Made by a program: the position numbers and the translations under genes. From NCBI RefSeq assembly GCF_015169395.1, contig NZ_CP063458.1, positions 3,968,001-4,032,000 on the forward strand: 64,000 bases of DNA, written 5' to 3'. The stretch is from Humisphaera borealis. Lineage in GTDB: Bacteria; Planctomycetota; Phycisphaerae; Tepidisphaerales; Tepidisphaeraceae. Of the stretch, positions 396 to 15,374 are shown one piece after another. A model generated the notes under the pieces. That model was not told the DNA's origin. It made no database searches and was given only the letters and a program-made list of their open reading frames with translations. The stretch's first letter is position 1, and every line of letters starts with the position of its first letter.

Positions 396-1166
396 CTAAG
401 CGTTGGCTTCAACGATCATCTTTCGAATGACATCGTCGTACGCGTCGCGCATCGGCAGGTCCAGTTCCCGATGAAGGCGACGGCGGGTCGTTTCGACTGC
501 TGTGCCGGTACGCGGATCAACGCCTACCTTAACGACGTCTTGCCACCAGACGCCCGAACCACGCTTTTGCCACACGGGAAGGTCGTTGAAATTGATCTTG
601 CCCTGTTGAAACAACAGTTCGTTCTTCTCGGCGACCGTCAATCCGGAGAGCATCTCCGTCGCACGCGTATCCGTTTGCCCCTGTCGCCGAAGGAACCAAT
701 AACAGTGAGCATTGAGCGCGTTACGGTGCGCGTCTTCATTTCGCCAGCGGAAGTAGTCCACAACCAGGTTCTCTGTGGGCAGTTCGCAAACCCTGGAGTC
801 GAAGCATCCGATGTCGCCCAACAGTAGCGAGAACCTGGCACTGGCTTCGCCAGCGAGGACGGAGTTGAGCTTGCGTGTCTTGCGATTGAACGAGCCGTCC
901 TCGCGGTGCAACAGAAGAGAAATTTCGTCGCTCTGCGTATAGCCGTAGATCACACGGGGGCCGCAGGACATAAGGTGTTCGACGGTGGCGAGCATCATGT
1001 CGCGGAAACGCACATCGAAGGGGGCTTCGAACTTGTGTACATCCTTCGTCAACCGGGTGAAGCTCCGGCCATCCAGACGGACCACGATATAGATGCCCGG
1101 CACGACAAAGTAGTCGTGAGAGGTTTCGAAGACGCGCATCTTTGCGTCGAGTTCGTCAAACTTCAT
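396..1166 (-). CDS. Thg1-like tRNA 3'-5' polymerase / guanylyltransferase
   Basis: 256 residues, normal length for the Thg1 superfamily, which adds nucleotides to RNA 5' ends in the reverse (3'-5') direction. The first metal-binding Asp is in RLDGRSFTRLTK (Asp32) and the second in YTQSDEISLL (Asp80), the two most diagnostic motifs. The eukaryotic HINNLYN motif is not present; the equivalent stretch reads HRNALNAH, as expected for bacterial Thg1-like proteins (TLPs). TLPs are known to repair 5'-truncated tRNAs. It is the last gene of a minus-strand run (aminopeptidase, kinase, thg1) downstream of rtcR, with a 32-base gap from the kinase. That context suggests a role in repair of damaged tRNA, which is inference. 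Family assignment is strong; tRNA-His modification is not implied. Confidence 0.88.
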   Translation of the reverse strand: MKFDELDAKMRVFETSHDYFVVPGIYIVVRLDGRSFTRLTKDVHKFEAPFDVRFRDMMLATVEHLMSCGPRVIYGYTQSDEISLLLHREDGSFNRKTRKLNSVLAGEASARFSLLLGDIGCFDSRVCELPTENLVVDYFRWRNEDAHRNALNAHCYWFLRRQGQTDTRATEMLSGLTVAEKNELLFQQGKINFNDLPVWQKRGSGVWWQDVVKVGVDPRTGTAVETTRRRLHRELDLPMRDAYDDVIRKMIVEANA

Positions 1167-1198
1167 GACTACTCCAATGGCAGACGTCGGGCAGGAGC

Positions 1199-1672
1199 CT
1201 ACGTCAATTCGGACAACTGCTCGATTCCCGCTGCAGTCCAGGTCACACGCCAGACACGATCGAATCCTTCGGCTTTCGAAGGGATCATGAGCTTCGCGGC
1301 CGTCCCACGGATCGCGATCTCCGGCACGCGTGCGTCATCGGGCCGGGTCGCATTGCGGGCAATACATTCCTCGATTCCGGTATCGAACCAGTAGCACTCC
1401 AAGGACTCAAATCCTGCGGCTCTCGCCAATGCGACATACCTCATCCGCTGAGAGGGTGAGGGGTTGGTATTGTCGACCACGAAGGCCTGCTGTGCCGCAA
1501 GGCACCCGTGCAACAGGATATCCTCACGGTTTCGTGTTCGGAGCATGTCCAGATTCAACCGGATATGCGTATTCGCGAATTGACGCGCATAAAAGGTAGA
1601 CTTTCCCGATCCTTGAAGCCCACAGAAGATGATCGCAGTAGCCACGTTGATGTCTCTCGGACTATACGCCAT
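1199..1672 (-). CDS. Small P-loop kinase, polynucleotide 5'-kinase-like
   Basis: 157 residues beginning with a beta strand and Walker A loop (GLQGSGKST), then an R-x-N-x-D segment (HIRLNLDMLRTRN), VVDNTNPS and a late Arg-rich lid region. This is the layout of the T4 Pnk/Clp1-type zeta-toxin-like kinase domain that phosphorylates RNA 5'-OH ends. No phosphatase domain is fused. The annotated ATG has no clear ribosome site; a GTG nine codons in (first base 1645) is preceded by gagaga and may be the true start. It sits 26 bases after the aminopeptidase gene and 32 before the Thg1-like gene, so the three are probably cotranscribed. A nucleic-acid 5'-kinase fits this RNA-repair neighbourhood, but other small-molecule kinases of the same fold cannot be excluded. 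Confidence 0.72.
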   Translation of the reverse strand: MAYSPRDINVATAIIFCGLQGSGKSTFYARQFANTHIRLNLDMLRTRNREDILLHGCLAAQQAFVVDNTNPSPSQRMRYVALARAAGFESLECYWFDTGIEECIARNATRPDDARVPEIAIRGTAAKLMIPSKAEGFDRVWRVTWTAAGIEQLSELT

Positions 1673-1698
1673 CGTTCATCCGCCATCCGCCATCAAGT

Positions 1699-2817
1699 TC
1701 ACTTCAAGTTCTCGGGATTCAGCCCCAGCAACTCCTTCATCACGAACTTCCCGTCCTTGCGGATCAGCTTCCCGTCGAACCAGATCTCGCCGCCGCCGAC
1801 GGCCGGGTCCTGGCGCATCACCATGTCCCAGTGAATCTTGCTCTTGTTGCCGTTGCTCGCCTCGTCGTAACACGCGCCGGGCGTGAAGTGGATGCTGCCG
1901 GCGATCTTCTCGTCGAACAGGATGTCCTTCATCGGCTTGGTCACGTACGGGTTGAACCCGATCGCGAACTCGCCGACGTACCGGCTGCCAGCGTCGGTAT
2001 CGAGCACCTCATTGAGCTTCTCGGTCGCGCTGCTGGTCGCCTCGACCACCTTGCCGTCCTTGAACGTCAGGCGGATGTCGTTGTGGGTGGTGCCGCGGTA
2101 GATCGTCGGCGCGTTGAACTGGATGACGCCATTGACGCTGTTCTTCACCGGCGCGCTGAAGACTTCGCCGTCGGGAATGTTCACCCGGCCGTCGCACGGA
2201 ATGCCGGCGATGCCCTTCATGCTGAAGGTCAGATCGGTATCGCCGGGGCCCTTCAGGCGGACCTTGTCGGTCTTGGTCATGAGCTTCGCCAGCGGCTGCA
2301 TCGCCTTGGCCATCTTGCGGTAGTCCATCGTGCAGACGTCGAAGAAGAAGTCTTCGAACGCTTCGGTGCTCATCTCGGCCATCTGGGCCATGCTGGGGCT
2401 GGGCCAGCGGAGGACGCACCAGCGGGTCTTCTTGATGCGGATCTGGTGGTGGACCTTCGTCCAGACGGTGGATTCGTACTTCTTCTGCTGGTCGCCGGGG
2501 ACATCGGACAGCTCGGAGATGTTGGCGTTGCCGCGGGCGCCGATGTAGCACTGCACCGACTGCATCTGTTTCTTTTCGACCTCGGAAATCAGATCCCATT
2601 GCCCGCCGTCGCCGGCCATCATCAGGGCGCGGTTGATTTCGTTGCTCTTGAGCGTCACCAGCGGCTTGCCGCCGGCCTTGGCGACCGCGGCGATGACCGC
2701 CTTGGTGAAGGCGTGCGGCACATCGATCGCCTCCAGAAGCAGGGCTTCGCCCTTCTTCACAGCGCAGGAGTAGTTCACGAGCAGGTCGGCCAGCTTGATG
2801 ATTCGGGGGTCGGTCAT
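1699..2817 (-). CDS. M29-family metallo-aminopeptidase
   Basis: 372 residues resembling the thermophilic aminopeptidase family M29 (AmpS / aminopeptidase T), cytosolic enzymes with a two-metal site that remove N-terminal residues. Family landmarks are visible: NIPDGEVFSAPV, with a ligand Glu in GEV; GEFAIGFNP, with the second Glu; IHFTPG; and KIHWDMV near the C terminus, supplying His and Asp ligands. There is no signal peptide. It is slightly shorter than typical members (about 400 residues). It is the first gene of a probable three-gene minus-strand transcript with the kinase and Thg1-like gene. A palindromic element separates it from rtcR, so cotranscription with rtcR is uncertain. Its link to RNA repair is not obvious and may be chance. 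Confidence 0.88.
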   Translation of the reverse strand: MTDPRIIKLADLLVNYSCAVKKGEALLLEAIDVPHAFTKAVIAAVAKAGGKPLVTLKSNEINRALMMAGDGGQWDLISEVEKKQMQSVQCYIGARGNANISELSDVPGDQQKKYESTVWTKVHHQIRIKKTRWCVLRWPSPSMAQMAEMSTEAFEDFFFDVCTMDYRKMAKAMQPLAKLMTKTDKVRLKGPGDTDLTFSMKGIAGIPCDGRVNIPDGEVFSAPVKNSVNGVIQFNAPTIYRGTTHNDIRLTFKDGKVVEATSSATEKLNEVLDTDAGSRYVGEFAIGFNPYVTKPMKDILFDEKIAGSIHFTPGACYDEASNGNKSKIHWDMVMRQDPAVGGGEIWFDGKLIRKDGKFVMKELLGLNPENLK

Positions 2818-3048: not shown

Positions 3049-4668
3049 TCAACCTTCGCAAGCCTTCTCCCAATCCAGCCCGAACCGCGCCAGGTACTTC
3101 CTCAGCCGGTCGGCGTCGTTGGGCTTGGCCTTCTGCGCCCGCGACGCGGCGAAGAGTGTTCGCCCGGCGTCCGACAGTGTTCGCGATTGGCGGCACACGC
3201 GGATCACCTCGGCGAGCTGCACGCGATCAAAGCGATCGATCTTTTCCATTGCATCGTTGGTCAGCACGCTGCCAAGACATTCATCGTCGCTCGCCCGGCC
3301 AGCGTCGCGCAGAGAAGTCGATGCCCACTGCCGGCGGAGCCGATCCACTTCTTCGGCGACGGTCTCGACCGTGATCCGCCCGCCGGCCGCCAGTGTGGCC
3401 ATCCGTGTGACGGCGGCGTTGAGGTCGCGGAAGTTGCCGATCCAGGTCGCATCGCCGCCGATCGCGAACGCCAGGAACCGCTCGCGCGCCTCTCGGTTGA
3501 ACGCAACTTTCACGCCCTCGCGCTGGGCGAAGCGTTCCAGTTCGTAGGTGAGGTTGGGTTCGATGTCTTCCCGCCGTTCGCGCAGCGGTGGGAGCGCGAA
3601 CGTCCAGAGGTTGATGCGGGCCAGCAGGTCTTCGCGAAACCGCCCGCCGGCAACGGCCGCCGGCAGGTCACAGTTGGTGCCGGCGATCAGCTGGAAATCG
3701 CTGCGGGCTTCCTTGTCTGAACCGACCGGCAGGAAGCGTTTCTCTTCGATCGCCCGCAGAAGCATCGCCTGCTCGTCAGTGCCGAGTTCGCCGATCTCGT
3801 CGAGGAAGAGCAATCCGCCGTCGGCCGCGCGAAGCAGGCCCGGTCGGTCGCTCGCCGCTCCGGTGAACGATCCCTTCACATGGCCGAACAGCGCCGACAT
3901 CGCCCCGTCGCCGCGGAGCGTGGCGCAGTTCACCTCCACAAACGGACCGGCGATCTGCCGTCGCGACTTCTTCAGTTCGTAGATCTGCCGTGCCAGGTGC
4001 GACTTGCCCGCGCCCGTCGGCCCGTTCAGCAGAATGGGTGCCTTGCTCGCGACGGCGACGCGTTCGATCCGTTCGATCAGCCGGTTGAAGGTGTCGCTGC
4101 GCGTCTCGATGCCACTCTTGAGCAGCGAAGTGCTCTCTCGCGTTTCGCGATCGAAGCGCGACGCCAAACGGTCGTACTTCGACAGGTCGAGATCGACCAC
4201 GCCATACGACCCCGGCCCGCTGCCCCACTTGGTCGGCGGTGCGGTCTGGATCAGCTTCCCCGGGAAGTACCGCGATTCGGTCAGCAGGAAAAGGCAGATC
4301 TGCGCCACGTGCGTGCCGGTGGTGATGTGAACGAGGTAGTCCTCCTCGTCGGGGTTGAACGCGTAAGACCGGCAGAAGTCGTGCAGCCCGCCGAAGACGT
4401 CCTGAAAGTCCCACGCGTCAGCGAAGTGCAGTTGGTGTTCCCGAACCTCGGTCTGCGGCGACACCGAGCGAATGTCGTCGCTGACGATGGTCTTGAGCGC
4501 GGTGAACTTCGGCTCAAAGAGCAGCTCGAACCGATCGATCGCCAGGTCTTCATGCTGAAAGAGCGACACGGTCGGTCGCCAGCGTTCCCACCGCGTGGTG
4601 CCCTTGCCCGAATCGAGCATCGGGCCGAGAAGGCCGATCGCGACCTGACGCTTGTTGGGTTTCGGCAT
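3049..4668 (-). CDS. rtcR: RtcR, sigma-54-dependent activator of RNA repair genes
   Basis: 539 residues, the normal RtcR length. Residues 1-180 form the RtcR-type CARF sensor domain (ITTGTHVAQICLFLL, then a PPTKWGSGPGSYG linker). In enterobacteria this domain responds to RNA fragments with 2',3'-cyclic phosphate ends. Residues 185-420 are an AAA+ domain with Walker A GPTGAGKS (216-223), the sigma-54 contact loop GSFTGA (266-271, first variable position Ser instead of Ala), Walker B LLFLDEIGE and arginine fingers in FREDLLARI and LRERREDI. The C-terminal residues 470-539 hold a Fis-like helix-turn-helix. It is divergent from rsr, with a perfect -24/-12 promoter in between, the classical arrangement for an activator and its target operon. 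Start is the first Met, MPKPNKRQVAIGLLG. Confidence 0.96.
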   Translation of the reverse strand: MPKPNKRQVAIGLLGPMLDSGKGTTRWERWRPTVSLFQHEDLAIDRFELLFEPKFTALKTIVSDDIRSVSPQTEVREHQLHFADAWDFQDVFGGLHDFCRSYAFNPDEEDYLVHITTGTHVAQICLFLLTESRYFPGKLIQTAPPTKWGSGPGSYGVVDLDLSKYDRLASRFDRETRESTSLLKSGIETRSDTFNRLIERIERVAVASKAPILLNGPTGAGKSHLARQIYELKKSRRQIAGPFVEVNCATLRGDGAMSALFGHVKGSFTGAASDRPGLLRAADGGLLFLDEIGELGTDEQAMLLRAIEEKRFLPVGSDKEARSDFQLIAGTNCDLPAAVAGGRFREDLLARINLWTFALPPLRERREDIEPNLTYELERFAQREGVKVAFNREARERFLAFAIGGDATWIGNFRDLNAAVTRMATLAAGGRITVETVAEEVDRLRRQWASTSLRDAGRASDDECLGSVLTNDAMEKIDRFDRVQLAEVIRVCRQSRTLSDAGRTLFAASRAQKAKPNDADRLRKYLARFGLDWEKACEG

Positions 4669-4824: not shown

Positions 4825-4936
4825 ACTAAATGGCGCAATCGTCCAGAAGTCGGGCCGGCGACCGAAGTTGCTTACTGATGCGCAAAGTCAATTCATTGAT
4901 AGTGTTGCGAGAATCTGTGCCGCTGTTACCAATGTG

Positions 4937-4951
4937 TGGCACGCCTAATGC
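4937..4951 (+). promoter_or_regulatory. Sigma-54 (-24/-12) promoter of rsr-Y RNA-rtcBA
   Basis: TGGCACG-N4-ATGC with the invariant GG (4938-4939) and GC (4950-4951) separated by exactly 10 bases. Predicted transcription starts near 4962, about 30 bases before the rsr start codon. Divergent rtcR makes this the expected RtcR target. It also shows that an in-frame ATG at 4936 cannot be the rsr start, since it lies upstream of the promoter core. Confidence 0.85.
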
Positions 4952-4992
4952 TCTGGGCCTCCCGTACGAACGATTTCGAACGGAGGTTTCAG

Positions 4993-6600
4993 ATGGCAAG
5001 CAAGACGCTCTTCAAGTCCAACGCGGGTTCGCTCATTCCGGCGGTCGACACGGTCAACGAGGCCGGCGGCATCGCCTACCGCTTCCCGGCGAAGCACATG
5101 CTCGCCCAGTACGCGGCGACCGGATGCCTGAACTCGACCTTCTACGCGACCGCCGAGCAGCAGCTCGCGACCGTGTTGGAGCTCTGCAAGAACCTCGAGC
5201 CCGAGTTCATTGCCCGCACCGCGATTTACGCGCGGCAGCGAGGCTACATGAAGGATCTGCCGGCATTGCTGTGCGCCGTTTTGGCGGCCAAGCCCAACGC
5301 CGGTGGATTGCTCGCGGAGGTCTTCGATCGCGTGATCGACGACGCCCGCATGCTCCGCAACTTCGTCCAGATCGTGCGGTCGGGCGTCACTGGTCGTAAG
5401 AGCCTCGGCTCGATGCCCAAGCGCCTGATCCTCAACTGGATCGAGAAGCGGTCGGACGATCAGCTGTTCCGCGCTTCGGTCGGCAATGACCCGTCGCTGG
5501 CGGATGTGATCAAGATGGTCCATCCCAGCCCGCGGTCCAAGGGCCGCGCCGCGCTGTTCGGCTACCTGATCGGCCGTGAGGCGACGATGACCGAAGCCGG
5601 CGCGTCCTGGACCGCCAACGACCTGCCGCAGCTCGTGAAGCAGTACGAGGCGTTCAAGACCGGCGCGTCGAAGGATGTCCCCGATGTGCCGTTCCAGATG
5701 CTCACCAGCCTGCCGCTTACCAGCGGCGACTGGAAGCAGATCGCCCGCAATGCCCCGTGGCAGATGACGCGGATGAACCTGAACACCTTCGCCCGGCATG
5801 GCGTGTTCGACGATGCCCAGGTGACGCAGTTGATCGCTGATCGGCTGCGCAACCCGGAACTGATCGGCAAGGCCAAGGTCTTTCCGTACCAGTTGATGGT
5901 CGCGTACACGCAGGTCGATTCGAAGGTGCCGACGGTCGTCCGCGAGGCGATCCAGGATGCGATGGAGATCGCGATCGCGAACGTCCCCAAGGCGCCCAAC
6001 GGCGTCTGGGTGTTCCCGGATGTCAGCGGCTCCATGCATTCCCCGGTCACCGGTCACCGCACCGGTGCGACGACCGCCGTGCGGTGCATCGATGTCGCGG
6101 CTTTGGTCGCGGCGGCGATGCTGCGGCAGAACCCCGGCTCGGCCGAGGTGCTGCCGTTCGAGTCGAACGTGGTCACAAGCTGCCGGCTCAACCCGCGCGA
6201 CACTGTGCTGACCAACGCCCAGAAGCTGGCCAGCCTGCCGTGCGGCGGCACTAACTGCTCGGCGCCGCTGTCAGAGCTCAACCGCCGCAAGGCCGAGGGC
6301 GACTTGCTCATCTACGTCTCGGACAACGAGTCGTGGCTGGACTCGCCGAACTACGGCTCCTGGGGCGGCGACCGGACGAAGACGATGGTCGAGTGGGCCG
6401 CCTACAAGAAGCGGAACCCCAACGCGAAGCTGGTCTGCATCGATATCCAGCCGTACGGATCGACGCAGGCGACCGAGCGTGAGGACATCCTCAACATCGG
6501 CGGCTTCTCGGACCGCGTCTTCGATATCATCGCCGAGTTCGCCAACGGCACGCTGCACCCCGACCACTGGGTGGGCGTGATCGAGGCGATTGCACTGTGA
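4993..6600 (+). CDS. rsr: Rsr, bacterial Ro60 (TROVE + vWA domain) protein
   Basis: 535 residues from the ATG at 4993, which has a strong ribosome site (cggagg, 4981-4986) and lies just downstream of the sigma-54 promoter. Residues 1-330 are the TROVE HEAT-repeat ring (recognisable in QYAATGCLNSTFYA and FIARTAIYARQRGYMKDLPAL). The C-terminal third is a von Willebrand A domain with a complete MIDAS DVSGS beginning at residue 343. Ro proteins bind Y RNAs on the outer ring surface and the 3' ends of misfolded RNAs in the cavity. Directly downstream lies the Y RNA array, followed by rtcB and rtcA, so the protein and its RNA partners are made from one locus. The call is secure. Confidence 0.96.
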   Translation: MASKTLFKSNAGSLIPAVDTVNEAGGIAYRFPAKHMLAQYAATGCLNSTFYATAEQQLATVLELCKNLEPEFIARTAIYARQRGYMKDLPALLCAVLAAKPNAGGLLAEVFDRVIDDARMLRNFVQIVRSGVTGRKSLGSMPKRLILNWIEKRSDDQLFRASVGNDPSLADVIKMVHPSPRSKGRAALFGYLIGREATMTEAGASWTANDLPQLVKQYEAFKTGASKDVPDVPFQMLTSLPLTSGDWKQIARNAPWQMTRMNLNTFARHGVFDDAQVTQLIADRLRNPELIGKAKVFPYQLMVAYTQVDSKVPTVVREAIQDAMEIAIANVPKAPNGVWVFPDVSGSMHSPVTGHRTGATTAVRCIDVAALVAAAMLRQNPGSAEVLPFESNVVTSCRLNPRDTVLTNAQKLASLPCGGTNCSAPLSELNRRKAEGDLLIYVSDNESWLDSPNYGSWGGDRTKTMVEWAAYKKRNPNAKLVCIDIQPYGSTQATEREDILNIGGFSDRVFDIIAEFANGTLHPDHWVGVIEAIAL

Positions 6601-6613
6601 AGTGAATGGCTGC

Positions 6614-6643
6614 CCCCTCTCCTGGAGGCTTCCGGGAGAGGGG
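6614..6643 (+). repeat. Strong hairpin after rsr
   Basis: Arms CCCCTCTCC and GGAGAGGGG with a further three-pair inner stem, starting 13 bases after the rsr stop codon. There is no run of T after it, so it is not a standard intrinsic terminator. It may separate the rsr mRNA from the Y RNAs, protecting the mRNA 3' end or marking a processing boundary. Confidence 0.6.
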
Positions 6644-6680
6644 CGGGCCAGTGGAACTCAGACGGAAGACCGGTCTTCCT

Positions 6681-6758
6681 CGCGACCGCCGCCGAATGCT
6701 CGATGGGATTACATTTCCCTGTAGCGTCTCATCAGAACTCTTGTCGGCGTCGGTCGCG
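6681..6758 (+). ncRNA. Y RNA 1 (no tRNA-like module)
   Basis: The 5' strand (6681-6695) and 3' strand (6744-6758) pair over 15 positions with one mismatch. Inside the stem are the motifs repeated in all six units: CGAATGC followed by GG..TACAT on the 5' side, and CTTGTCGG on the 3' side. These resemble the Ro-binding helix of Y RNAs in style (a CGAA-type 5' strand opposite CUUG). At 78 bases it lacks the T-arm, D-arm and acceptor parts seen in the others; its interior only has a weak GGG/CCC stem. This may be the plain Ro-binding form, comparable to non-tRNA-like Y RNAs in other bacteria. Confidence 0.68.
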
Positions 6759-6769
6759 CGGAAGTCCAT

Positions 6770-6869
6770 GCAGGCGAATGCTGGTCGGGAGTACATGGCA
6801 GCCGTGTGGGTTCGAACCCCACCTCGTCGCTTGCGACGGGAGGCAACTCTCGCCGAATTGGTCGCCTGC
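6770..6869 (+). ncRNA. Y RNA 2 with permuted tRNA-like module
   Basis: Closing stem GCAGGCGA (6770-6777) with TCGCCTGC (6862-6869), eight perfect pairs, followed by TTTT. The Ro-type motifs are CGAATGC..GGGAGTACAT on the 5' side and TTGGTCGC on the 3' side. Between them comes a T-arm (GTGGG-TTCGAAC-CCCAC), then a short acceptor-like hairpin (CGTCGC/GCGACG) and a degenerate D-arm-like hairpin with a GCAA loop. The order T-arm, acceptor, D-arm is permuted relative to a tRNA. It is the most divergent tRNA-like module of the array. Confidence 0.75.
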
Positions 6870-6912
6870 TTTTGAAACAACGTGCTGGCCTGGTAAGCCC
6901 GCGCGCTGAGGC

Positions 6913-7069
6913 CTCGATTTTGCGAATGCTGACGGAACTACATGCTTTAGAGGCCCGAGATGCGGGTTCGATTCCCGTCGGCTCCATTGCCCGCAAGGGC
7001 GTACATTTGGGGTCGTCGTCTAACGGCAGGACGCGGTAACAAGTTTCGTTAAATGTTGGTCGCAGCGAG
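6913..7069 (+). ncRNA. Y RNA 3 with permuted tRNA-like module
   Basis: The closing stem is CTCG..TGCGA with TCGCA.CGAG, interrupted by an internal loop. The Ro-type motifs are CGAATGCTGACGGAACTACAT and TTGGTCGC. The T-arm is GCGGG-TTCGATT-CCCGT. A seven-pair acceptor stem follows (GGCTCCA with TGGGGTC, G-U pairs included), closed by a loop that itself contains GCCC-GCAA-GGGC. Then come a convincing D-arm (GTCGTCTAACGGCAGGAC) and a small stem-loop before the 3' strand. The 5' acceptor and D-arm look much like those of a real tRNA-Glu/Gln. It is the longest unit (157 bases). Confidence 0.8.
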
Positions 7070-7076
7070 TCCGAAC

Positions 7077-7208
7077 GCCGATCGGCGAATGCCTTGAGGA
7101 ACTACACCCTACCCGGTGGAGGTCGCGGGTTCGAATCCCGTCGCCCGCAAGGGCGTAGCTCAGCGGCTAGAGCACCTGTTTCTCAATCCTTTGGTCGCTA
7201 TCGTCGGC
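7077..7208 (+). ncRNA. Y RNA 4 with permuted tRNA-like module
   Basis: Closing stem GCCGA (7077-7081) with TCGGC (7204-7208), then an internal loop and GCGA with TCGC. The Ro-type motifs are CGAATGCCTTGAGGAACTACA and CTTTGGTCGC. The T-arm is GCGGG-TTCGAAT-CCCGT. The acceptor is five perfect pairs capped by a GNRA tetraloop (CGCCC-GCAA-GGGCG). A textbook D-arm follows (TAGCTCAGCGGCTAGAGC). It begins only seven bases after Y RNA 3. Confidence 0.82.
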
Positions 7209-7243
7209 GATGCTTGAAGATGGTCTAAAACAGAAATGGTGGG

Positions 7244-7377
7244 ATTGGCCTTTGCGAATGCCGGAGGAACTACATTTAAACTTGAGGTCGCGGGTTCGAG
7301 TCCCGCCACCGTAAAGGTGTAGCTCAGTTGGTTAGAGCGCAAGTCTCGTTTCTCCAACCCTTGTCGTGATGGCCGAT
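7244..7377 (+). ncRNA. Y RNA 5 with permuted tRNA-like module
   Basis: Closing stem of about 14 positions around GGCC..GCGA with TCGT..GGCC, with one mismatch and several G-U pairs. The Ro-type motifs are CGAATGCCGGAGGAACTACAT and CCTTGTCG. The T-arm is GCGGG-TTCGAGT-CCCGC. The acceptor is CACC with GGTG, capped by GTAAA. The D-arm is TAGCTCAGTTGGTTAGAGC, indistinguishable from that of a normal tRNA, with the conserved GG of the D-loop. Length 134 bases. Confidence 0.82.
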
Positions 7378-7384
7378 TTCAGTG

Positions 7385-7513
7385 GTACGCGGTGCGAATG
7401 CTGTTCGGACTACATGTTGCGGGTTCGAGTCCCGTCGGCTCCATTTTCTCGGTTCGGGGCCGTAGCTCAATGGTAGAGCACTCGTCTGGACAACGCCTTG
7501 TCGCACCTTGTAC
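7385..7513 (+). ncRNA. Y RNA 6 with permuted tRNA-like module
   Basis: Closing stem 7385-7397 with 7501-7513, 12 of 13 positions paired and a perfect core (GGTGCGA with TCGCACC). The Ro-type motifs are CGAATGCTGTTCGGACTACAT and CCTTGTCGC. The T-arm is GCGGG-TTCGAGT-CCCGT. The acceptor is GGCTCC with GGGGCC, closed by a 13-base loop without GNRA. The D-arm is GTAGCTCAATGGTAGAGC. Just after it, at about 7515-7585, are fragments resembling another 5' strand (GCGGAATGCC and GGAACTAC) without a partner, split by a palindrome; this is probably a broken seventh unit. Confidence 0.82.
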
Positions 7514-7528
7514 GAGCGGAATGCCTGT

Positions 7529-7634
7529 GTAGGGCGGGCACTACCCGCTGAAGAAACGCGGAACTACGGTTGCGATCCCTCATCTGTGTAACGTGGTAAG
7601 GAACAATCAGTCCGGCGGGCAATGCCCGTCCTAC
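7529..7634. repeat. Inverted palindrome pair (REPIN-like) before rtcB
   Basis: Two 20-base arms (7529-7548 and 7615-7634), each itself palindromic around GGGC..GCCC, are inverted copies matching at about 17 of 20 positions. The element ends 10 bases before the rtcB start, so it occupies the place of a ribosome site and may explain why no good Shine-Dalgarno is seen there. It seems to have broken a seventh Y RNA unit. Confidence 0.6.
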
Positions 7635-7644
7635 GAGAACGAAC

Positions 7645-9153
7645 ATGTATATCGACCCCACCACCCCCAAGCCCCCGATCACCGCCACCGGCGACGCCGT
7701 GGGATTTTTGCCAGCGCGCAACTCGTACGGCAAGCCGATCACCGTCATCGGGACCGAAGCTATCCGCAACGGGTTCGATGCGATCTGCCTTCAGCAGGCG
7801 CTCAACAGCCGCGGTGCGCCCGGCGTGACCGACCTGGTGCTGAACCCCGATGCGCACGCCGGCTACGGCGCGCCGGTCGGGTCGGTGCTGGTCTCGCCGA
7901 CGCACATCTATCCCGGCCCGGTGGGCGTCGACATGAAGTGCTCGATGAGCCTTCTGCAATTCGATCTGCCGGTCGAGGAAATCGCCGATAAGAAGGTCCG
8001 CCGGAAGCTGATCGAAGAAATCTGCCAGCGCCTGCCGACCGGCGCGGGGCGGGGACAGTCGTCGCTCAAGCACGGCCGCAAGATCTCTGTCGACCTGGGA
8101 AAGCAGGCGGTGATCGAAGGCGCTTCGGCATCGGTCTGCGCACAGCTCGGGATTCCGCCGCGCTGGGCGGATCGGTGCGAGGATTCGTTCCACGTTGCCC
8201 ATGACGGGTCGGCGGGAACGCTCGGCGAGCGGCTTGAGTGGCTCCTTCACGCCGGCGTGGTGAAGAACTTCGACATCAAGGTCAACCAGCTCGGCAGCTA
8301 CGGCGGCGGGAACCACTTCGGCGAGTGCGAAGCGGTGGAAGTGGCCGACAACGACCGGGCCCGCGCCGTGGCCGATGTCTTCGGCCTTCGCCACGGCAAG
8401 ACTGCGTTCCTGTCGCACTGCGGATCGCGCGGGCTCGGCAACGTGCTGGCGAGCGGGCAGTTCAAGGCGCTGCAGGCGATGTTCGCCCGCTGGGACATCC
8501 CGCTGCCCGGCGGCGACAAGGAGCTGGTCTACGCTCCGCTCGGAACCCCCGAGGCCGACGCGTACCTGGACGACCTGGCGCTGGGTGCGAACTTCGCGAC
8601 GGTCAACCACATGCTGATCAACGCGATGGTGCTGGAGGCGTTTGAGTCGGTGTTCCCCGGCATTAAGGGAGACCTGGTGTACTTCATCAGCCACAACATC
8701 GCCCGGCAGGAGATCGTGGACAACCGGCCGGCGTGGGTGCACCGCAAGGGCGCGACGCGCGCGTTCCCCGGCGGGCACCACGCGCTCAAGGGAACGCCGT
8801 TCGAAGCGACCGGACATCCGATCCTGCTGCCGGGAAATCCGCGCGACGGCTCGGCGGTGATGGTCGCCGACGCGGGCGCAGCGCTGAGCTGTTACAGCGT
8901 GAACCACGGCGCCGGCCGGGCGATGGGCCGCAAGGAGGCGATCCGCCGGCTGGACCAGGGAACGATCGACTCGGAGATGCACGAGCACGATATCCTGAGC
9001 AATTGCCGTCAGTACCCCAAGGACGAGGCGCCGGCGGCGTACAAGGATTTCAACGAAGTCCTGAAGAGCGTCGCGCTGGCGGGACTGGCGAGTGAAGTCG
9101 CGCGGCTGAAGGCGCGCTTCGTCATCAAGGACGGCGACAAGGCGGATGATTGA
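7645..9153 (+). CDS. rtcB: RtcB, RNA-splicing ligase
   Basis: 502 residues, close to family length. RtcB joins RNA 2',3'-cyclic-phosphate or 3'-phosphate ends to 5'-OH ends using GTP and Mn2+. Metal and guanylylation residues are visible: Asp96 and Cys99 (GVDMKCSM), His224 (GGGNHF), His258 (SHCGSRGLG), His350 (ISHNIARQE), and the guanylate-accepting His421 in NHGAGRAMGR. The WVHRKGATRAF block is also typical. The GVDMKC segment differs from the more common GYDINCG, so it belongs to a less typical RtcB subfamily. It lies downstream of rsr and the Y RNAs and upstream of rtcA, with a palindromic element in the gap. No strong ribosome site precedes the ATG. Confidence 0.96.
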   Translation: MYIDPTTPKPPITATGDAVGFLPARNSYGKPITVIGTEAIRNGFDAICLQQALNSRGAPGVTDLVLNPDAHAGYGAPVGSVLVSPTHIYPGPVGVDMKCSMSLLQFDLPVEEIADKKVRRKLIEEICQRLPTGAGRGQSSLKHGRKISVDLGKQAVIEGASASVCAQLGIPPRWADRCEDSFHVAHDGSAGTLGERLEWLLHAGVVKNFDIKVNQLGSYGGGNHFGECEAVEVADNDRARAVADVFGLRHGKTAFLSHCGSRGLGNVLASGQFKALQAMFARWDIPLPGGDKELVYAPLGTPEADAYLDDLALGANFATVNHMLINAMVLEAFESVFPGIKGDLVYFISHNIARQEIVDNRPAWVHRKGATRAFPGGHHALKGTPFEATGHPILLPGNPRDGSAVMVADAGAALSCYSVNHGAGRAMGRKEAIRRLDQGTIDSEMHEHDILSNCRQYPKDEAPAAYKDFNEVLKSVALAGLASEVARLKARFVIKDGDKADD

Positions 9154-9159
9154 GCAGGT

Positions 9160-9334
9160 GTCCGTGACACGGGTTTCCAACCCGTGCGAGTTACGTGCGG
9201 TCGCAGGTTATCGTTCATCCTCAGTGCGGCTCTCATCGATCGCTTCTGGCATCGTTGGCGAATGGATCACTGAGGATTGGCGTCTGACCGCGGCGTGGCG
9301 CAGCTCGCACGGGTTGGAAACCCGTGTCACGGAC
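9160..9334. repeat. REPIN-like element, family B, between rtcB and rtcA
   Basis: Perfect 31-base inverted arms (9160-9190 and 9304-9334) enclose 113 bases. Each arm holds its own small palindrome (CACGGGTT/AACCCGTG around a TCC turn). A related but not identical element follows rtcA, so this family has at least two copies here. It leaves a 220-base gap inside what should be the rtcBA operon. Confidence 0.85.
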
Positions 9335-9376
9335 GCTCGGCTCGGGCTGACGAATTTTCTCTGTACGGGGACGATC

Positions 9377-10399
9377 ATGATCACCATCGACGGCTCACAA
9401 GGCGAGGGCGGCGGGCAGGTGCTTCGCACGTCGCTGGGCCTTTCCATGCTCACCGGGACGCCGTTCCGCATCACGCGGATTCGCGCCAACCGTGACAAGC
9501 CGGGGCTTATGCGGCAGCACCTGACGTGCGTGCTGGCGGCGGCGCAGGTCTGCTCGGCGGAGGTCGTCGGCGCGGCGGTCGGTTCGTCGGAACTTACGTT
9601 CAAGCCGGGCACGGTGCGGCCGGGGGATTACACGTTCTCGGTCGGGACCGCCGGCAGTACGACGCTCGTATTACAGGCGGTCCTGCCGGCGCTGCTGAGG
9701 GCGGCTTCGCCGAGCACGATTACGCTGGAAGGCGGCACGCACAACATCTTTGCGCCGCCGGTCGATTTTCTGGAAAAGTCGTTCCTCGCGGTCGTGAACC
9801 GGATGGGGCCGAGCGTTGCAGTCACGCTGGACCGGTACGGCTTCTACCCCGCCGGCGGCGGGCGGTGGACGGCGGCAATCACGCCGTCGGCAAAGCTCGA
9901 TGCGATTGAGATCACGAAACGCCTGGAGATCACCCACCGCCGCGCGGTCGCGCTGGTCGCCGGTTTGCCGGGCGAGATCGGCATGCGCGAACTGGAGACG
10001 TTGCGCAGAGGATTCTCGTGGGAGCCGGACTGCTTCCAGATCCGCCAGCTCCCCGGTGACTGTGGGCCGGGCAACGTCGTGATGATAGAGATCGGCGACG
10101 GTCAGGTGACGGAGGTGTTCACCGCGTTCGGCGAGCGAGGCGTTCGCGCCGAGGCTGTCGCCGAGCGGTGCATCAAGCAGGCCCGCGCGTATCTCGCCGC
10201 CGGTGCGCCCGTCGGCGAGCACCTGGCCGATCAACTCCTGATTCCGTTGGCGATGGCGGGCGGCGGGTCGTTCGTCACCGGCCGGCCGACGGAACACACG
10301 CGCACCAACATCGACATCGTGCAGAAGTTTCTGCCGGTAACGATCACGATGCGCGAATTGGAAGGGGATCAGTGGGGAGTCGAGATTGCCGGGATATAG
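9377..10399 (+). CDS. rtcA: RtcA, RNA 3'-terminal phosphate cyclase
   Basis: 340 residues from ATG 9377, matching the normal family size (about 340). RtcA converts RNA 3'-phosphate ends to 2',3'-cyclic phosphate through adenylylation. The opening IDGSQGEGGGQVLR signature is complete. The nucleotidyl-accepting His is His307 in TEHTRTNID, and the HNIFAPPVDF region is also typical. The reading frame extends upstream to 9146 without a stop, but that part crosses the palindromic element, so the later ATG is preferred. It is the last gene of the predicted RtcR-controlled transcript, and is followed by a second copy of the family B palindrome. Confidence 0.95.
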   Translation: MITIDGSQGEGGGQVLRTSLGLSMLTGTPFRITRIRANRDKPGLMRQHLTCVLAAAQVCSAEVVGAAVGSSELTFKPGTVRPGDYTFSVGTAGSTTLVLQAVLPALLRAASPSTITLEGGTHNIFAPPVDFLEKSFLAVVNRMGPSVAVTLDRYGFYPAGGGRWTAAITPSAKLDAIEITKRLEITHRRAVALVAGLPGEIGMRELETLRRGFSWEPDCFQIRQLPGDCGPGNVVMIEIGDGQVTEVFTAFGERGVRAEAVAERCIKQARAYLAAGAPVGEHLADQLLIPLAMAGGGSFVTGRPTEHTRTNIDIVQKFLPVTITMRELEGDQWGVEIAGI

Positions 10400-13598: not shown

Positions 13599-15374
13599 AT
13601 GCAAACCGTCGTCCACGTCACCCACGAGGCCGTTCAGAAGATTGGCGGCATCGGCGCGGTCCTGCAGGGATTGCTCACAAGCCGCACCTATCTCAAGGAT
13701 TGTCCTCGCAACATCCTGATCGGTCCCTTCTGGCCGAGCGACGGGCACGGCGAGCAACGACTCGGACCGAATGCGGAAGTGCTCTACAGCAGCCTCGATC
13801 ACCTCTACCGTTCGCCGCTCGCCGAGCGATTCGCGCAGATCGAGCAGCGCTATGAAGTGGGTATCGTGTACGGCCGACGCCGATTCGTCGATCCGCAGAC
13901 CGGCGTCGTTTCGACCGCAGAGGTGCTACTGGTCGATGTCGCCCGTTTTGATGCTCAGCAGATCGGCGACTTCAAGTTTCAACTGTGGCAGAAGTTTGGC
14001 ATCGAATCCGGGCGTTACGAAGGCGCCTGGGATTACGAGCAGTGGGTCCGGCTGGCGCGGCCGGCGATCGATGCCTTGCACGCGCTGGGCGCCACAACCC
14101 ACGGGCATGAGCCGTGCGTCATCCTCGCCCATGAGTACATGGGCATGCCTACGGCGCTGGCGGCTATTCTTGAGGGAGACCGCTCAAACTTCCGCACGAT
14201 CTTTCATGCCCACGAATGCGCGACCGTCCGGCGCATCGTCGAAGGGCATCCGGGCCACGACACGATGTTCTACAACGTCATGCGATCGGCGATGGCGACG
14301 GGTCAGTTCGTCGACGACGTGTTCGGCGACCAGTCCGACTTCTACAAGCACGTCCTCGTGAAAGCCGCCCGCTTCTGCGACGGCATCTTCGCCGTCGGCG
14401 ACTACACCCTGAAGGAGATACGCTTCCTCGGCAACGACTTCGTCCATACCGATGTCCAGATTGCCTACAACGGCGTGCCTCACTGGAGGATCTCGCTCGA
14501 AGAGAAGATGGCCAGCCGACAGAAGCTGCGCAACTACTGCCGGGCGCTGCTGAAGTTCGAACCCGACTATGTCTTTACGCACGTCACTCGGCTGGTTCCC
14601 AGCAAGGGGCTGTGGCGCGACCTGAAGGTGTTGGAATACGTCGAGGAGATTCTTCGCGACCGTAACGAGACAGCCGTCCTGTTCACCCTGAGCACCGAAA
14701 TCCCGGCCCGCCGGGGCGACGACGTCCGCAAGATGGAAGCGGCGTACCACTGGCCGGTGGCCCACCGCGAAGGTATCCCCGACCTGTCCCATGGCGAGGC
14801 GGACTATTACTCGGGCGTTCAGGAGTTCAACGCCTGTTCCCGCAATGTGAAGGTCGTCTTCGTCAACCAGTTCGGCTGGGACCGTTCGTGCTGTGGTGAT
14901 CGCATGGCGGCCGACATGCAGTTCATGGACATCCGCAAGGGCTCCGACGCCGAGTTCGGCCAAAGCATCTACGAGCCGTTCGGCATCGCGCAAGTGGAGC
15001 CGATCAGCTTCGGTGGAATCTGCGTGTTCACGAACGTCTGCGGCTGCGCCGGTTTCGTCGAAGCTGCCGCCGGAGGCGAAACGCCAAACGCGATCGTCGC
15101 CGACTATACGAACCTCGCTGATCGCATGATTCGTCCGGAGAAGCTGCTGGGCCTGGGGAAGGACGAACGGGGCGTCATCGAAGACCGCGAGGCGCTGCGA
15201 GTCGCCAAAGAACTGGTCAACCGCCTGCCGCGAACGCAAAAAGACTTCGAGGCCACCATTCACCGCGGCTACGAGCTGGCGAGCCGGATGAGCTGGGACG
15301 TGGTGGCGAGAGATTACATTCTGCCGGGGATCCATCGCGCGGCAAAGGCGAGCCGGTTGAAGGAGATGGCTTAA
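13599..15374 (+). CDS. Glycogen/starch-synthase-like glycosyltransferase
   Basis: 591 residues with a GT-B fold layout. The N-terminal phrase [12 protein letters not shown] matches the K-x-G-G-(L/I) ADP/UDP-sugar-binding loop of glycogen synthases. HEYMGMP and [11 protein letters not shown] precede the linker, RLVPSKG opens the C-terminal domain, and [14 protein letters not shown] holds the E-x7-E catalytic motif. It probably extends an alpha-glucan from a nucleotide sugar. It is longer than bacterial GlgA (about 480) and has insertions in the first domain. Met47 of the longer open frame is chosen because the recognisable fold begins there, although no strong ribosome site is evident. It is followed 43 bases later by glpK, with a small hairpin (15381-15400) in the gap. 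Confidence 0.85.

What the first reader, a model, noticed from the sequence alone, without database searches (positions are those of the whole stretch)
6681..7513. Array of six Y RNA genes between rsr and rtcB, five with circularly permuted tRNA-like modules
Seen directly: six units, each with a 5' strand bearing CGAATGC..GG..TACA, a 3' strand bearing (C)TTGKTCG and a pairing stem between them. Units 2-6 carry between the strands a T-arm (GGTTCGANTCC), an acceptor-like stem closed by a loop (GCAA in unit 4), and a D-arm, in that order. This equals a tRNA whose acceptor ends are joined and whose anticodon stem is replaced by the Ro-binding stem. Known: YrlA-type bacterial Y RNAs mimic tRNA, and rsr-Y RNA-rtcBA operons exist in Salmonella and others with one or two Y RNAs. 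I know of no array of six; the modules differ in acceptor length and in likeness to real tRNAs, so they may recruit different tRNA enzymes.
Basis: partly seen in the sequence, partly recalled or inferred. Interest (0 to 1): 0.88.

Follow-up and report, generated by a model that had tools for sequence, protein, structure and literature searches.

The report
Six Y RNA genes mimicking tRNAs
A planctomycete RNA-repair operon carries six small-RNA genes of the bacterial Y RNA kind, most with a scrambled-order copy of part of a tRNA, and two of them (with one counterpart in most related operons) end their tRNA-like stem exactly as the host's real tRNAs do, hinting that tRNA-processing enzymes may act on them.

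Summary
Confirmed: 6681-7513 holds six Y RNA genes between rsr (Ro60) and rtcB/rtcA, in an operon with RtcR and a sigma-54-like promoter. Each unit's own two strands pair, and swapped strands do not. One correction: unit 1 has no tRNA part and unit 2 lacks a D-arm, so four units (3-6), not five, carry the full permuted T-arm/acceptor/D-arm module. The module covaries strongly across 44 relatives. Permuted tRNA mimicry by YrlA is known. Arrays of one to six Y RNAs are usual in relatives, and one other genome also has six, so the array itself is not exceptional.

What looks new is a subclass. Units 3 and 6, and usually one unit per relative array, have a complete 7-bp acceptor stem followed by a tRNA-type 3' end. 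Where host tRNA genes encode CCA, these units often read N-CCA exactly at positions 74-76 (6/11, against 0/12 in CCA-less hosts). In CCA-less hosts, including this one, they read N-UU (10/12 against 0/11). G3·U70, the alanine identity pair, recurs. I propose that this subclass is handled, and perhaps opened, by tRNA end-processing enzymes. Structure and conservation are shown; expression, Rsr binding and processing are not.

The parts
3049..4668 (-). RtcR, sigma-54 activator with CARF-like domain, divergent from rsr
   Evidence: Pfam RtcR E=4.7e-79
4937..4952 (+). sigma-54 -24/-12-like promoter TGGCACgcctaATGCT of the rsr operon (the GTG start listed at 4936 is too early; the likely start is ATG 4993)
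   Evidence: 1 mismatch to consensus (about 2 such sites expected by chance per window); the same element lies upstream of rsr in many relatives
4993..6600 (+). rsr, bacterial Ro60 (TROVE + vWA)
   Evidence: Pfam vWA_Ro60 1.2e-14, TROVE 9.7e-9; D. radiodurans Rsr structure 2NVO E=2.5e-18
6684..6755 (+). Y RNA unit 1: Ro-type stem only, no tRNA module (YrlB-like)
   Evidence: fold; Rfam YrlB 26.2 bits, below threshold; no T-arm
6770..6869 (+). Y RNA unit 2: T-arm 6806-6822 and 7-bp acceptor-like stem 6823-6829/6834-6840 capped by CUUG; no D-arm
6919..7069 (+). Y RNA unit 3: open-acceptor class. T-arm 6962-6978, acceptor 6979-6985/7009-7015 (7 bp, G3.U70), A73 then UU, 23-nt apical loop, D-arm 7018-7032
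7082..7204 (+). Y RNA unit 4: YrlA with 5-bp acceptor stem capped by GCAA; T-arm 7125-7141, D-arm 7158-7173
   Evidence: Rfam YrlA 53.2 bits
7251..7373 (+). Y RNA unit 5: typical YrlA, 4-bp acceptor stem with GUAAA loop; T-arm 7290-7306, D-arm 7322-7338
   Evidence: Rfam YrlA 76.3 bits, above gathering score
7391..7510 (+). Y RNA unit 6: open-acceptor class. T-arm 7419-7435, acceptor 7436-7442/7456-7462 (GGGGCCG/CGGCUCC, G3.U70), A73 then UU, 13-nt apical loop, D-arm 7465-7479
   Evidence: Rfam YrlA 63.4 bits; best module match 64.5 bits
7645..9153 (+). rtcB, 3'-phosphate/5'-OH RNA ligase
   Evidence: Pfam RtcB 1.3e-96
9146..10399 (+). rtcA, RNA 3'-phosphate cyclase (likely starts downstream of this ORF's first codon)
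   Evidence: Pfam RTC 1.8e-80
396..1166 (-). Thg1-like 3'-5' polymerase / tRNA-His guanylyltransferase, on the far side of RtcR; possible neighbour of the repair locus
   Evidence: Pfam Thg1 5.7e-32; not seen in the flanks of relatives

Best explanation
The array encodes six Y RNAs co-expressed with Rsr, RtcB and RtcA from an RtcR/sigma-54 promoter when tRNAs are damaged. Each RNA is held by Rsr through its own Ro-binding stem, and the part beyond the stem is the effector module. Unit 1 has none, unit 2 has a T-arm/acceptor minihelix, units 4 and 5 have the classical YrlA permuted tRNA with a short capped acceptor, and units 3 and 6 have a permuted tRNA with a complete acceptor stem, discriminator A73 and a tRNA-like 3' trailer. 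The modules present the elbow and acceptor that tRNA-binding enzymes read, so an Rsr ring is tethered to, or decoys, such enzymes (PNPase and tRNA-modifying enzymes in known cases). For the open-acceptor class I propose that tRNA end-maturation enzymes (RNase P, tRNase Z, CCA-adding enzyme) bind, and may cut, the apical loop, giving a two-piece Y RNA with a free tRNA-type 3' end. Shown here: gene anatomy, folds, covariation, acceptor-end conservation, operon context. Inferred: co-expression on damage, Rsr binding, effector binding, processing.
For: Operon proteins and promoter. Rfam YrlA hits. Unit-specific stems. Module covariation over 44 sequences: 98.0% of cells paired, 120 double-change cells against 27.9 in shuffles, score 0.570 against 0.166. 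Acceptor anchored only on T- and D-arm: 38 of 56 units pair all 7 positions, against 5.6% with swapped strands. CCA falls at offset 74-76 in 14 of 55 seven-bp units and at only one other loop position among those tabulated. Host tRNA genes without CCA here; CCA status of relatives. Open units: N-CCA 6/11 in CCA-encoding hosts against 0/12, p=0.005; N-UU 10/12 in CCA-less hosts against 0/11, p=7e-5. Known operon logic: RtcR is activated by tRNA fragments (PMC7790460); YrlA is modified by DusA/TruB and tethers PNPase (PMC8394870).
Against: No transcript, Rsr-binding or processing data exist for this organism. CCA-less hosts are largely one clade, so the association with CCA status rests on few independent evolutionary changes and p-values overstate it. 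Five of eleven open units in CCA-encoding hosts lack CCA. My open/capped rule classed two N-CCA units with 6-7 nt loops as capped. RNase P cutting of a continuous 6-nt loop may be hard.
Confidence: 0.62

Rival explanations
1. All six are ordinary Y RNAs whose loops stay closed. The tRNA-like modules are decoys or docking sites only, and the complete acceptor of units 3 and 6 is a relic of a tRNA ancestor without separate function.
For: Classical YrlA works with a closed short stem (PMC8394870; Rfam consensus). A decoy role against an anticodon nuclease was proposed for Salmonella YrlA (PMC7790460). Acceptor identity is not uniform: G3.U70 in 9 of 27 open units, A3-U70 and U/C73 in Rhizobiaceae.
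Against: A relic would not keep N73-CCA or N73-UU in register while the rest of the loop varies from 6 to 41 nt, nor track host tRNA convention. Seven-bp pairing is preserved with double changes.
Confidence: 0.38
2. Open-acceptor modules are repeatedly recaptured from the host's own tRNA genes (gene conversion), which alone explains why their ends match the host.
For: Ends follow the host tRNA convention. tRNA genes lie inside several Y arrays in relatives and a 32-tRNA array lies directly upstream of rsr in G066.
Against: Units 3 and 6 are no closer to any host tRNA than host tRNAs are to one another (3' half 0.80 against baseline mean 0.81; 5' half 0.82-0.86 against 0.79) and the two halves match different tRNAs.
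Confidence: 0.12
3. The tRNA-like blocks are ordinary or tandem tRNA genes read in the wrong register.
For: YrlA and module models do give weak hits in true tandem tRNA arrays, here at 4.479 Mb and in relatives.
Against: ARAGORN finds no tRNA in 6601-7644. Every unit has its own Ro-type stem. In tandem tRNAs the flanking acceptor halves need not pair, here they do.
Confidence: 0.01
4. Units 3 and 6 are a permuted, two-piece tmRNA.
For: Weak matches to cyano_tmRNA (28.8 bits) and tmRNA_permuted (25.7) and a G3.U70, A73 acceptor.
Against: Both scores are below their cut-offs (70 and 47). The host has a normal ssrA at G000:C1:716728-717113, 162.8 bits. No room for a tag reading frame between the D-arm and the Ro stem. 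tmRNA lacks this D-arm.
Confidence: 0.02

Closest known systems
YrlA-type bacterial Y RNA (Rfam RF02553; crystal structure 6CU1 of Salmonella YrlA)
   Same: Ro-binding stem, circularly permuted T-arm, acceptor-like stem and D-arm, position next to rsr; unit 5 passes the Rfam threshold
   Different: Units 3 and 6 have a complete 7-bp acceptor with tRNA-type 3' end instead of a short capped stem; unit 2 lacks the D-arm; six units in one operon
YrlB-type bacterial Y RNA (Rfam RF02565)
   Same: Unit 1: Ro-type stem, no tRNA module, first in the array as yrlB is in Salmonella
   Different: Score 26.2 bits, far below the gathering score of 97
rsr-yrlBA-rtcBA RNA repair operon of Salmonella (PMC7790460, PMC9879122)
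   Same: RtcR divergent, sigma-54 promoter, rsr, Y RNAs, rtcB, rtcA in the same order
   Different: Six Y RNAs instead of two; Thg1-like, P-loop kinase and M29 genes beyond rtcR
Circularly permuted tRNA genes (red algae, some archaea) and two-piece permuted tmRNA (from general knowledge)
   Same: Order T-arm, 3' acceptor half, spacer, 5' acceptor half, D-arm; spacer would have to be cut out
   Different: Anticodon arm replaced by a Ro-binding stem; no tag; no processing shown

Membership tests
YrlA (RF02553) | Score above the Rfam gathering threshold (69 bits) | tested here: inconclusive
   Unit 5 76.3 bits passes; units 6, 4, 3 and 2 score 63.4, 53.2, 35.9 and 24.5
YrlA (RF02553) | Ro-binding stem with conserved strands CGAAUGC..UACA and CUUG/UUGG-UCG | tested here: met
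   All six units; pairing unit-specific
YrlA (RF02553) | Circularly permuted tRNA module with T-arm, acceptor-like stem and D-arm | tested here: met
   Met by units 3-6. Unit 2 has no D-arm and unit 1 no module
YrlA (RF02553) | Gene next to rsr | tested here: met
   rsr ends at 6600, array starts at 6684
YrlA (RF02553) | Binds Rsr and an effector such as PNPase | not testable with these tools
   Needs pull-down or binding assay
YrlB (RF02565), unit 1 | Score above the Rfam gathering threshold (97 bits) | tested here: not met
   26.2 bits; unit 1 works like a YrlB by anatomy but is not filed as a member
rsr-yrl-rtcBA RNA repair operon | Divergent rtcR, sigma-54 promoter, rsr, Y RNAs, rtcB, rtcA | tested here: met
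tRNA (RF00005) | Cloverleaf with anticodon arm in normal order | tested here: not met
   ARAGORN finds none in the array; the only RF00005 hit here is below cut-off (27.1 bits)
Permuted tmRNA (RF04321) | Score above 47 bits and a tag reading frame | tested here: not met
   25.7 bits; host has a normal tmRNA

The most novel reading that the evidence does not exclude
One Y RNA per array (two here) is a precursor of a two-piece RNA: RNase P and tRNase Z cut out the apical loop, CCA is encoded or added, and the freed acceptor is aminoacylated (alanine where G3.U70 is present), so that Ro60 carries a chargeable tRNA mimic made on demand during tRNA damage.
Probability: 0.18. Interest if true: 0.92.

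Novelty: new variant of a known kind. Interest (0 to 1): 0.66.

Why it matters
The function of bacterial Y RNAs inside RNA-repair operons is open. A conserved subclass with a complete, host-style tRNA 3' end gives a sharp test: map the ends of these RNAs. If they are cut and carry CCA, Ro60 RNPs would contain a permuted, possibly chargeable tRNA mimic, tying Ro60 to tRNA end maturation; if they are not cut, the ends are fixed bait for tRNA enzymes. The sorting of units into stem-only, minihelix, capped and open types also suggests that one Ro60 serves several effectors at once.

Tried and rejected
YrlA hits at 4.4789-4.4792 Mb of the host genome looked like a second array, but they are tandem tRNA genes, the false-positive type of these models. 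A motif hit at 13768 lies inside a predicted ORF, lacks an adequate upper stem and was dropped. ARAGORN on rotated modules with a borrowed anticodon arm calls all four as tRNA, but also many controls with a shuffled acceptor, so it does not discriminate. Direct descent of units 3 and 6 from a present host tRNA: no excess identity. Pfam and NCBIfam do not recognise the Ro60-like protein of the second lineage. Key papers on YrlA (Chen 2014, Wang 2018, Sim and Wolin 2018; Burroughs and Aravind 2016) are not in the library, so I cannot exclude that open-acceptor forms were mentioned there.

Full report
WHAT IS THERE. Between rsr (ATG 4993 to 6600) and rtcB (7645-9153) lies an intergenic stretch of about 1 kb with six consecutive Y RNA units on the + strand. 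A motif-plus-stem search finds six units in the window and none on the opposite strand; dinucleotide shuffles give 0.4 per window. Each unit's 5' strand pairs with its own 3' strand far better than with any other (diagonal 31.6-45.6, off-diagonal 15.5-26.8). Rfam YrlA covers units 2-6 with falling scores; only unit 5 passes the curated cut-off.

OPERON. Pfam names RtcR (-), Rsr, RtcB and RtcA, the gene order of the Salmonella rsr-yrlBA-rtcBA repair operon (PMC7790460, PMC9879122). A -24/-12-type element TGGCACgcctaATGCT sits at 4937-4952, 41-56 nt before the likely rsr start; about two such matches are expected by chance per window, but the same element lies upstream of rsr in many relatives. 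No sigma-70-like promoter was found in 6550-7700, so one polycistronic transcript cut into units is likely (inference).

ANATOMY OF THE UNITS. Unit 1 is a bare stem (YrlB-like). Units 4 and 5 have the full permuted module with a 5-bp (GCAA) or 4-bp (GUAAA) acceptor stem. Units 3 and 6 have the full module with all seven acceptor pairs, then A73 and UU, and an apical loop of 23 or 13 nt.

RELATIVES. rsr is present in 17 of 298 genomes of the class and 40 of 392 of the phylum sample. 140 units were found in 48 loci, one to six per locus: six also in L040, five in L014, L080, L083 and Rhizobium plasmids L158, L166, L167. Multi-unit arrays are therefore normal. The window genome shares its family with a MAG labelled Phycisphaerales (L013 is the same contig as L027/L046).

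COVARIATION. On 44 modules aligned by MAFFT, the structure T-arm, acceptor, D-arm gives 98.0% paired cells, 13 of 16 pairs with changes on both sides, and 120 double-change cells against 27.9 in shuffles; none of 500 shuffles reaches it and slid controls collapse to 39-49% paired. To avoid circularity, acceptor halves were also located only from the T-arm end and the D-arm start: 38 of 56 units pair at all seven positions, against 5.6% when 3' halves are swapped between units.

THE OPEN-ACCEPTOR SUBCLASS. Seven-bp acceptors fall into two kinds: capped by tetraloop-like ends, or open with loops of 6-41 nt. Open units occur once in nearly every array that has one, and twice in the window and in L085. 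In 55 seven-bp units CCA occurs 14 times at exactly positions 74-76 and once elsewhere in the tabulated loop positions. The host's 58 parsed tRNA genes do not encode CCA and are often followed by UU. Pattern counts separate CCA-encoding from CCA-less hosts clearly. Open units read N-CCA in 6 of 11 CCA-encoding hosts and 0 of 12 CCA-less ones (p=0.005), and N-UU in 10 of 12 CCA-less hosts and 0 of 11 others (p=7e-5); four more Rhizobiaceae units all read N-CCA. Because the CCA-less hosts are mostly one clade, these p-values overstate independence.

IDENTITY ELEMENTS. G.U pairs in open acceptors concentrate at pair 3:70 (10 of 19), with G3.U70 in 9 of 27 open units, including both in the window; among 57 host tRNAs G3.U70 occurs only in the two called tRNA-Ala. 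This is the alanine identity element of tRNA-Ala and tmRNA (established knowledge). It is not universal: Rhizobiaceae have A3-U70 and Rhodobacteraceae C1-G72. Units 3 and 6 are not copies of any present host tRNA.

MECHANISM. Shown in the literature: RtcR senses tRNA fragments (PMC7790460), YrlA is modified by tRNA enzymes and tethers PNPase (PMC8394870), YrlA superposes on tRNA by circular permutation (PMC11472068). Inferred: Rsr holds each RNA by its own stem, modules address different tRNA-reading enzymes, and open units are bound and perhaps cut by end-processing enzymes. The closed-loop decoy remains the main rival.

BEYOND THE WINDOW. A model of the module also hits arrays in same-family genomes without canonical rsr. 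There the units carry a different stem (CCCAACGGC..GAGCAUACA / GACUUG) and lie between a tRNA array and a 500-aa protein with a C-terminal vWA motif. That protein matches Rsr weakly (blastp 2.9e-4; TROVE structures at E=0.11). This looks like a second Ro60/Y RNA lineage. In G066 a 32-tRNA array sits upstream of rsr and its six Y RNAs, and single tRNA genes lie inside or beside other Y arrays. Both fit a role in tRNA damage.

Noticed in passing
L198 7676-9754, L199 6950-9889, L200 (minus strand), L201 (minus strand): Possible second Ro60/Y RNA lineage: permuted tRNA-like units with a different Ro-type stem (CCCAACGGC..GAGCAUACA / GACUUG) next to a vWA protein that only weakly resembles Rsr and that Pfam and NCBIfam do not recognise; a ThiF-like protein is encoded nearby in L198, L199 and L201.
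   Followed up: partly
L208 234-8501 (G066): A 32-tRNA gene array directly upstream of rsr and its six Y RNAs; arrays of 18-29 tRNAs also adjoin the second-lineage loci L198, L199 and L200.
   Followed up: partly
L036 3343-3513, L038 3187-3259, L039 6776-7072, L041 3485-3557, L202 9569-9983: Ordinary tRNA genes (Leu, Arg, Pro) inside or beside Y RNA arrays of relatives.
   Followed up: no
G000:C1:4478732-4480582 (L142, L207): A second, compact array of about 13-20 tRNA genes in the host genome, unlinked to rsr, duplicating many isoacceptors.
   Followed up: no
window 396-2817: Thg1-like polymerase, P-loop kinase (AAA_33) and M29 peptidase genes on the minus strand beyond rtcR; no homologues in the flanks of relatives searched.
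   Followed up: partly
L070 1246, L073 999 (minus strand), L074 984: In planctomycetes with a more divergent Rsr, permuted tRNA-like modules lie outside the usual place downstream of rsr, about 0.3-0.5 kb from the rsr match and apparently upstream of it in L070 and L074.
   Followed up: no
window 7531-7638: Inverted repeat GTAGGGCGGGCA..TGCCCGTCCTAC between the last Y RNA and rtcB, possibly a small mobile repeat.
   Followed up: no
L161 (OR851267.1), L162 (OR845705.1): Short unverified 'phage' records that hold rsr with three Y RNAs; likely bacterial DNA in phage assemblies.
   Followed up: no
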